From assembly GCA_028821605.1 (NCBI GenBank), contig JAPPFM010000010.1:124001-188000 (forward strand): DNA of 64,000 nucleotides. The letters are read 5' to 3'. The translations under genes and the position numbers were made by a program. Every line of letters starts with the position of its first letter. The stretch's first letter is position 1. A model generated the notes under the pieces. That model had not been told where the DNA came from. It saw nothing but the letters and a program-made list of their open reading frames with translations, and did not search any database. The stretch comes from Candidatus Poribacteria bacterium. GTDB lineage: Bacteria > Poribacteria > WGA-4E > WGA-3G. This document shows, piece by piece, positions 30,118 through 31,010 of this stretch.

Positions 30118-30162
30118 GCTTTTTGTTGCCCTAAAACCCAGTTTTCTTTGGTATTTGTATGT

Positions 30163-30209
30163 TACGGTAAACGCGGGCGTTTTGAAGGGTTCAATTCCCT
30201 TCTACCGTA
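30163..30209 (+). ncRNA. tRNA-like minihelix (acceptor plus T-arm, no anticodon arm)
   Basis: TACGGTA (30163-30169) and TACCGTA (30203-30209) form a perfect 7-base-pair acceptor-like stem. Directly before the 3' strand is a T-arm look-alike, GAAGGG-TTCAATT-CCCTTC (30184-30202), with the canonical GGTTCAATTCC sequence. The 14 bases between hold only a tiny AACG/CGTT stem. D and anticodon arms are absent and no CCA follows, so this is not a working tRNA. It could be a tRNA mimic, a decayed tRNA gene or part of the structured region that follows. Confidence 0.5.
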
Positions 30210-30239
30210 TTCAGTAGCGTTGTGTAATAACCAAACACG

Positions 30240-30520
30240 CCCCGACGAGAACCATGTCGGTGCTACTGGAGAGGTTCATATACGAGTGAGACGAACCTTG
30301 ACATTGTGAGGACACTCGGAAGAAGAAAAAGCGTTAGCATTTCGGTGCTAACTTTGAGGGTTACTCCACGTCACGTGTTTCCTTTGTGGCGTGCAAGTCG
30401 CTTATATCTTCTGCCACGTAGCAGGTTGAGTTGGATGTAGGCAGGCTAAGACACTGACGAGTGTCGTAACAGGGGCTTAAGGAATCCCGTAAGAAACTAC
30501 ATTTACCTACGAAAACGCAG
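30240..30520 (+). ncRNA. structured RNA resembling HEARO / IscB omega RNA, without an IscB gene
   Basis: This gap folds into many clean stems: CCGAC/GTCGG (30242-30260), AGGTTC/GAACCT (30272-30298), GTTAGCA/TGCTAAC around TTTCGG (30333-30352) and CTGC/GCAG (30411-30424). A multibranch core is closed by ATGTAG (30435-30440) and CTACAT (30497-30502), holding GACACT-GACG-AGTGTC (30450-30465) and a GGG/CCC stem. Single-stranded parts read GCAAGTCG, GGTTGAGTTGG, GCAGGCTAAG and TCGTAACA...GCTTAAGGAA...CGTAAGAA, the kind of A/G-rich conserved loops I recall from HEARO RNAs, the IscB guide scaffold. The family match is from memory and needs a covariance search. No IscB-like frame is nearby. Confidence 0.5.
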
Positions 30521-30551
30521 GTTTACGCAGTTTTTTACTAACAGTATATTC

Positions 30552-31010
30552 TTGAATCGCGTTCACACTCTTCTTGCCGCAATTGTTATCGCAGTGGCGG
30601 TTTCCATTATTAACGGCTGTTCAGAGACCGACAAAGTGACCGTTAGCGACGAAGGCGAAGAATCTAACACTGAACTCACATTGAATGAGCAATACGATAA
30701 AGTGCGAAACGGTGCCCGACTGATTTTAACTTATGATGCGCAAACCAATTCCTTCAAAGGGACTGTGGAAAACACGACAAACGAAACTTTGAAGCAGGTC
30801 AGGGTTGAAGTTCACTTATCAAACGGAAAAGAGCTCGGGCCTACGCCTTCAGGGGACCTCGCCCCCGGTGAAATAAGGGCAGTTGAACTCTTGGCAACCA
30901 GTACAGGATTTAACGGCTGGACTGCCCATGCCGAAGTCGGTGAAGGTGAACATAGTAGTGGTGAATCTCACGGGGAGCACGATCGCGAAGGCGGTGGCGA
31001 ACACAATTGA
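30552..31010 (+). CDS. lipoprotein with FxLYD-like domain
   Basis: A 152-residue exported lipoprotein. After a hydrophobic segment (LLAAIVIAVAVSII) comes the lipobox NGC. The body (LTYDAQTNSFKGTVENTTNETLKQVRVEVHLSNGKELGP...LAPGEIRAVEL) matches the beta-sandwich FxLYD type, and the tail is rich in His/Gly/Glu (GEHSSGESHGEHDREGGGEHN), possibly metal-binding. The start is TTG 30552, as no ATG precedes the signal region in frame; no obvious Shine-Dalgarno is seen. Confidence 0.65.
   Translation: MNRVHTLLAAIVIAVAVSIINGCSETDKVTVSDEGEESNTELTLNEQYDKVRNGARLILTYDAQTNSFKGTVENTTNETLKQVRVEVHLSNGKELGPTPSGDLAPGEIRAVELLATSTGFNGWTAHAEVGEGEHSSGESHGEHDREGGGEHN

What the first reader, a model, noticed from the sequence alone, without database searches (positions are those of the whole stretch)
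30240..30520. Orphan HEARO / IscB omega-RNA-like structured RNA with no IscB gene
The gap folds into at least seven clean stems, including a multibranch core closed by ATGTAG/CTACAT (30435-30440, 30497-30502) with GACACT/AGTGTC inside. Unpaired A/G-rich stretches (GCAGGCTAAG, TCGTAACA, GCTTAAGGAA, CGTAAGAA) look like conserved tertiary contacts. From memory this matches HEARO, the guide scaffold of IscB. IscB should follow directly; instead an FxLYD lipoprotein does. An orphan scaffold could be a remnant, a trans-acting guide RNA for an IscB elsewhere, or domesticated. The first bases 5' of the scaffold would be its guide.
Basis: partly seen in the sequence, partly recalled or inferred. Interest (0 to 1): 0.78.

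Follow-up and report, generated by a model that had tools for sequence, protein, structure and literature searches.

The report
Gene-less IS607 element with TnpB guide-RNA
The stretch is not an IscB (HEARO) RNA: it is a gene-less copy of an IS607-type jumping element that carries the guide-RNA scaffold of the nuclease TnpB plus a new tRNA-like/pseudoknot RNA part, and its relatives sit exactly between the ribosome-binding site and start codon of host genes, including essential ribosomal-protein genes, so something must keep those genes working.

Summary
A real structured RNA is present, but it is larger than reported (about 30141-30544) and is not HEARO. Rfam finds no HEARO match there, and the genome's eight IscB/IsrB genes carry unrelated RNAs. 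The 3' part (30352-30544) is homologous to the region directly after tnpB in IS607 elements (tnpA serine recombinase plus tnpB) of this Candidatus Poribacteria genus. It is 97% identical over 91 nt to the copy in the same genome. It is therefore a TnpB omega/reRNA with the right end at 30544; the guide would lie 3' (30545 onward), not 5'. The 5' part (30164-30318) is a new covarying module: a tRNA-like elbow, a three-way junction and a pseudoknot. It occurs in 33 ORF-less copies in the genus and 3 in another genus, never with tnpA/tnpB. Empty sites at three loci show insertion exactly after the Shine-Dalgarno AGGAG, which matches the published IS607 TnpB TAM 5'-AGGAG; 37 of 41 right ends are followed by a start codon within 15 nt. 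Module-bearing copies precede single-copy rplU and rplV, plus rpsT, rpmB, rpsU and nuoD, so the module probably keeps insertions harmless; how is unknown. The window copy has lost its left tip and the SD.

The parts
30118..30140 (+). host intergenic remnant after the anti-sigma gene; the Shine-Dalgarno AAAAGGAG that stands before the FxLYD gene in empty-site relatives is missing here
   Evidence: alignment by eye to empty sites L137/L138
30141..30163 (+). inner remnant of the IS607-type left end; the outer tip ([AGGAG]-N3-TTCCTAAATAG) is deleted
   Evidence: alignment with 20 other copies; left-end consensus
30164..30208 (+). tRNA-like domain: 6-bp acceptor-like stem, D-arm-like hairpin with a GG-containing loop, 6-bp T-arm with TTCAATT loop
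   Evidence: covariation; other members weakly hit Rfam mascRNA, a tRNA-like RNA
30212..30268 (+). three-way junction closed by CAGTAG/CTACTG, with two hairpins whose loops share the motif AAnAACCA
   Evidence: covariation; same architecture in another genus
30272..30318 (+). H-type pseudoknot: stem AGGTTC/GAACCT, loop CGAGTG with CACTCG
   Evidence: CGAGTG/CACTCG invariant in the genus, replaced by AGCAGA/TCTGCT in genus G040
30333..30352 (+). linking hairpin GTTAGCA/TGCTAAC
   Evidence: sequence and alignment
30352..30544 (+). TnpB omega/reRNA scaffold and right end; GGTTA (30359-30363) pairs with TAAC (30539-30542) at the 3' end
   Evidence: same RNA directly 3' of tnpB in IS607 elements; 27 of 44 pairs compensatory; right boundary from empty sites
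30545..30564 (+). predicted guide (host flank): TATATTCTTGAATCGCGTTC
   Evidence: IS607 reRNA architecture (PMC11061315, PMC10711439) and empty site AAAAGGAG|TATATTC TTG
30552..31010 (+). downstream FxLYD-domain gene, TTG start 7 nt after the right end; reading frame conserved, its SD no longer adjacent

Best explanation
The feature is a decayed copy of an ORF-less IS607-family element. Its parts are a left-end remnant, a 5' tRNA-like/pseudoknot RNA module, a TnpB omega/reRNA scaffold, and a right end at 30544. The family is inserted by an IS607 tnpA serine recombinase acting in trans, by crossover at an AG dinucleotide inside the Shine-Dalgarno AAGGAG. AGGAG is also the TnpB TAM. The element therefore lands, always in sense orientation, between a gene's SD and its start codon. 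The reRNA would pair with TnpB made by intact IS607 copies elsewhere in the genome and direct it, through the 3' flank as guide, to cut TAM plus target at emptied or allelic sites, which favours retention. The 5' module is most likely what makes insertion tolerable, at the RNA level, for the downstream gene. Shown: homology, boundaries, empty sites, target motif, structure, association with essential genes. Inferred: trans-activity of TnpA and TnpB on this RNA, and the role of the 5' module. The window copy lacks its left tip and the SD, so it is probably no longer mobile.
For: Autonomous IS607 elements (tnpA: NF033518, E 2e-46; tnpB: NF040570, E 8e-34) share the left end and the 3' RNA. Empty sites: FxLYD locus, rplU and rplV loci. 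Left flank AGGAG in 19 of 26 left ends matches the published IS607 TnpB TAM 5'-AGGAG (PMC11061315). 37 of 41 right ends have an ORF start 2-15 nt downstream against 11.8% at random positions. Strong covariation in both RNA halves. Module-bearing copies precede rplU, rpsT, rpmB, nuoD, rplV, rpsU, trxA, coxIII, sodA, jag and pup, whereas none of 8 autonomous copies precedes such a gene (Fisher 0.019); rplU and rplV are single-copy.
Against: No expression or cleavage data. The reRNA does not match Rfam's RAGATH-18 or any other family. The window copy's own left end is too degraded to show the junction directly. The 'core gene' grouping is my own classification and the numbers are small.
Confidence: 0.85

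Rival explanations
1. Orphan HEARO/IscB omega-RNA, with a 5' guide.
For: Eight RRXRR (IscB/IsrB) genes exist in this genome; multibranch RNA with purine-rich joints.
Against: No HEARO match at the locus; the IscB/IsrB RNAs of the genome are unrelated in sequence; the homologous RNA follows tnpB; the right boundary is at the 3' end of the RNA.
Confidence: 0.02
2. The 5' module is a self-splicing intron of a new kind: an IStron-like element whose RNA removes itself and rejoins SD and start codon.
For: Architecture (structured 5' part, guide RNA 3' part, IS607 ends, ORF-less copies) equals that of group B IStrons (PMC4227781); insertion separates SD from AUG in essential single-copy genes; left ends hold TCCT complementary to the AGGA of the flank, also in the second genus.
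Against: No group I intron match; the pseudoknot topology does not resemble P3/P7; TTCCT is also in autonomous elements without the module; some retained copies have lost the left end and SD yet keep the module (window, L034/L044, L127/L120).
Confidence: 0.25
3. The 5' module acts without splicing: as a translation-enabling or RNA-processing leader (tRNA-like part cut by RNase P/Z, or ribosome recruitment) that lets the downstream gene be read although its SD is 400 nt away.
For: tRNA-like elbow with conserved T-loop and GG loop; module kept in copies that lost the left end and most of the reRNA; related tRNA-like leaders lie between genes in other Poribacteria loci.
Against: No direct evidence; the module lies 230-380 nt upstream of the start codon; several right ends offer no SD at all.
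Confidence: 0.35
4. The 5' module is passive cargo or a 5' extension of the reRNA used only for TnpB; host genes survive through alternative start sites.
For: It lies in the same transcript direction as the reRNA; some right ends provide a weak SD (AGGAACAG).
Against: Autonomous elements have the reRNA without the module; copies with a gutted reRNA keep the module; essential genes are hit.
Confidence: 0.2

Closest known systems
IS607-family TnpB reRNA (RAGATH-18-derived RNAs, ISFba1; PMC11061315)
   Same: RNA at the right end of IS607, 3' of tnpB, about 190-nt scaffold, guide from the 3' flank, AGGAG at the left flank (their measured TAM), pairing of the scaffold's 3' end with its 5' part
   Different: No RAGATH-18 match; here no tnpA/tnpB in the element; extra 5' module
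Group B IStrons (IS607 plus group I intron; PMC4227781)
   Same: IS607 ends and target type, structured 5' RNA part, some copies without ORFs
   Different: 5' part is not a group I intron by Rfam; insertion is in the SD-start spacer rather than inside coding sequence; splicing untested
HEARO / IscB omega-RNA (RF02033)
   Same: OMEGA-type guide scaffold of a transposon
   Different: No covariance-model match, no IscB relation, opposite guide polarity
PATE/MITE-type non-autonomous IS200/IS605 elements
   Same: ORF-less, moved in trans
   Different: IS607 ends, and carries a conserved reRNA plus a long structured module

Membership tests
HEARO (RF02033) / IscB omega-RNA | covariance-model match | tested here: not met
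   no match at the locus up to E 10
HEARO (RF02033) / IscB omega-RNA | iscB/isrB directly downstream here or in homologues | tested here: not met
   no IscB in 1.5-kb flanks of homologues; downstream genes are host genes
IS607 TnpB omega/reRNA | homologous RNA directly 3' of tnpB, ending at the element's right end | tested here: met
IS607 TnpB omega/reRNA | left flank of the element equals the TAM (AGGAG) | tested here: met
   family; empty sites; published TAM. Lost by deletion in the window copy itself
IS607 TnpB omega/reRNA | binds TnpB and guides cleavage | not testable with these tools
   needs RNP purification or interference assay
RAGATH-18 RNA | Rfam covariance-model match | tested here: not met
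IS607-family mobile element (non-autonomous) | ends shared with autonomous tnpA/tnpB elements and precise empty sites | tested here: met
IStron | group I intron in the 5' part | tested here: not met
   no RF00028 match at E 5-10 in about 20 loci
IStron | RNA-level excision of the element | not testable with these tools
   no transcript data

The most novel reading that the evidence does not exclude
The tRNA-like/pseudoknot module is a new class of mobile RNA domain that lets an element sit between the Shine-Dalgarno sequence and start codon of essential genes without silencing them, by new-type self-splicing or by a ribosome-recruiting or RNA-processing leader. Its partner guide RNA uses the SD itself (AGGAG) as TAM, so the element spreads over the SD sites of a genome.
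Probability: 0.5. Interest if true: 0.9.

Novelty: new variant of a known kind. Interest (0 to 1): 0.74.

Why it matters
It gives a natural case where a TnpB TAM equals the Shine-Dalgarno sequence, which explains orientation and position of every copy, and where gene-less elements split SD from start codon in single-copy ribosomal-protein genes. Either bacteria here translate without a near SD, or an undescribed RNA domain repairs the message; both are directly testable. It also shows that guide-RNA scaffolds persist as independent parasites of TnpB-encoding elements.

Tried and rejected
HEARO: rejected. Group I intron / classical IStron: no Rfam match. tRNA or tmRNA gene: ARAGORN finds none. 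Trans-acting guide for another site in the genome: best other match to the first 16 guide bases has one mismatch, and none of the matches inspected has an AGGAG TAM. Viral relatives: none by pattern. The Nocardia pattern hit (L110) was set aside as a chance match because every other hit is Poribacteria; it was not examined further. Literature: no paper in the library joins TnpB or IS607 with Shine-Dalgarno; the library is incomplete.

Full report
What was claimed and what is there. But Rfam gives no HEARO match in the window, nor at E up to 10 on the locus or in a genome search with RF02033. The genome has eight IscB/IsrB-type genes, four of them with a weak HEARO match next to them. All eight share one upstream RNA (GTCAACTACCC...CTACAGTAATATATCGCAGT...) unrelated to this one.

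Homologues. The 435-bp gap has 73-82% identical relatives at many different loci in 22 other genomes of the same genus and none beyond it at DNA level. The collection scan names them Candidatus Poribacteria. Partial matches of 90-97% over 83-91 bp (97% in the window's own genome) lie directly behind a TnpB-like reading frame. Larger regions show complete IS607 elements: tnpA (IS607 transposase NF033518, E 2e-46; MerR plus resolvase domains) and an overlapping tnpB (NF040570, E 8e-34; TNB and HTH_OrfB domains). They share the left end TTCCTAAATAGTT..TTTTTCTATGTTTTTCTTG and the right end ..TTTTT...AACAG with the ORF-less family. The 3' half of the feature, 30352-30544, is thus a TnpB omega/reRNA. 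Its structure is supported by compensatory change in 27 of 44 pairs over 29 sequences, including pairing of GGTT(A/C) near its 5' end with (T/G)AAC at the right end; such a pseudoknot is required for activity in ISXfa1 (PMC10711439).

The 5' module. 30164-30318 is absent from the autonomous elements. It is present in 33 ORF-less copies in the genus, one of them the window's. None of the 32 copies checked with flanks has tnpA or tnpB. It comprises a tRNA-like elbow (acceptor-like stem, D-arm-like hairpin with GG loop, T-arm with TTCRANT loop), a three-way junction and a pseudoknot. Pairing holds in 96.2% of cells with covariation score 0.265 (shuffles 0.123; slid versions at most 0.067). Three copies in another genus (G040) keep the architecture with diverged sequence. 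There the pseudoknot helix CGAGTG/CACTCG becomes AGCAGA/TCTGCT. The tRNA-like part of some members weakly resembles Rfam's mascRNA (25 bits, below the gathering score). ARAGORN does not call it a tRNA. No group I intron is found.

Insertion site. In G009 and G012 the orthologous locus (anti-sigma gene, FxLYD gene) reads ...AAAAGGAG|TATATTC TTGAATCG. In the window the element ends ...ACTAACAG|TATATTC TTGAATCG. Two more empty sites, at rplU and rplV, show the same: AGAAAGGAG|TAATATT..ATG and TTAGGAG|(AG)ACACTG ATG. The element thus enters at the AG of AAGGAG, between SD and start codon. 19 of 26 candidate left ends have AGGAG. 37 of 41 right ends are followed within 2-15 nt by a start codon of an ORF of at least 60 codons, against 11.8% of random positions. 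AGGAG is the TAM measured for 18 of 22 strains with IS607 TnpBs (PMC11061315). That paper never mentions Shine-Dalgarno or start codon, and no paper in the library joins the two ideas.

Consequence for host genes. In all 22 copies where both junctions are readable, insertion weakens anti-SD pairing at the start codon (median -3.5 against -8.75 kcal/mol in the rejoined sequence). Yet module-bearing copies sit before nuoD, rplU, rpmB, rpsT, rpsU, rplV, trxA, cytochrome oxidase III, sodA, jag and pup, whereas the eight autonomous copies precede no such core gene (Fisher one-sided 0.019 on my own classification). rplU in G010 and rplV in G040 are single-copy. This is the main argument that the 5' module makes insertion tolerable. 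Several shortened copies (L034/L044 before pup; L127/L120 before a metal-binding gene, where L100 in a third genome is full-length) have lost the left end and most of the reRNA but keep the module at full model score and carry an SD-like AAAGGA in the right end. That suggests a role of the module in cis for the gene.

The window copy. Its left tip and the SD are deleted, so it is probably immobile. The downstream FxLYD gene still looks selected (dN/dS near 0.14 against both empty-site relatives) but has no SD near its TTG start. The gene has three further paralogous matches in this genome. The predicted guide, 30545-30564, would address the empty allele; no AGGAG-flanked match was found among the other sites inspected in the genome.

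Mechanism, shown and inferred. Shown: element identity, boundaries, target motif, RNA structures, gene association. Inferred from established IS607/TnpB biology: mobilisation in trans, processing of the reRNA and cutting of emptied sites by TnpB made by the intact copies. Open: whether the 5' module works by splicing (IStron-like, but not group I), by recruiting ribosomes, or by processing of its tRNA-like part.

Noticed in passing
L171 (180-294), L172, L173 (2313-2433): tRNA-like RNA leaders related to the 5' module sit directly after stop codons in clusters of small ORFs (one with an integrase-like ORF) in other Poribacteria genomes.
   Followed up: partly
L127, L120, L100: A small metal-binding (HMA-like) gene after the element reads GMT-UGA-GNC, with UGA where cysteine is expected: a likely selenoprotein.
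   Followed up: no
L034/L044: A shortened element copy lies directly before a Pup gene (prokaryotic ubiquitin-like protein, PF05639) in two genomes.
   Followed up: no
G000 genome: Eight IscB/IsrB-like genes of about 310-400 aa, apparently without HNH domain, flanked by their own RNA GTCAACTACCC...; only two Y1 transposases in the genome.
   Followed up: partly
L039, L046, L109: Other ORF-less elements with the same reRNA. L039 and L046 carry a different 5' module, and L046 lies before the acyl carrier protein gene; L109, before a BMC shell gene, has an altered 5' module found by the same model (121 bits).
   Followed up: no
L048-L055 tnpB: The TnpB of this lineage has lost zinc-ribbon cysteines (YTSKTVSWTGEV in place of the usual CxxC) while acidic residues in RuvC-like motifs (ALDPxVRDF, DRDLNGARGI) are present.
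   Followed up: no
L043 2767-3045: T-box leader above the gathering score (100 bits) in a Poribacteria genome.
   Followed up: no
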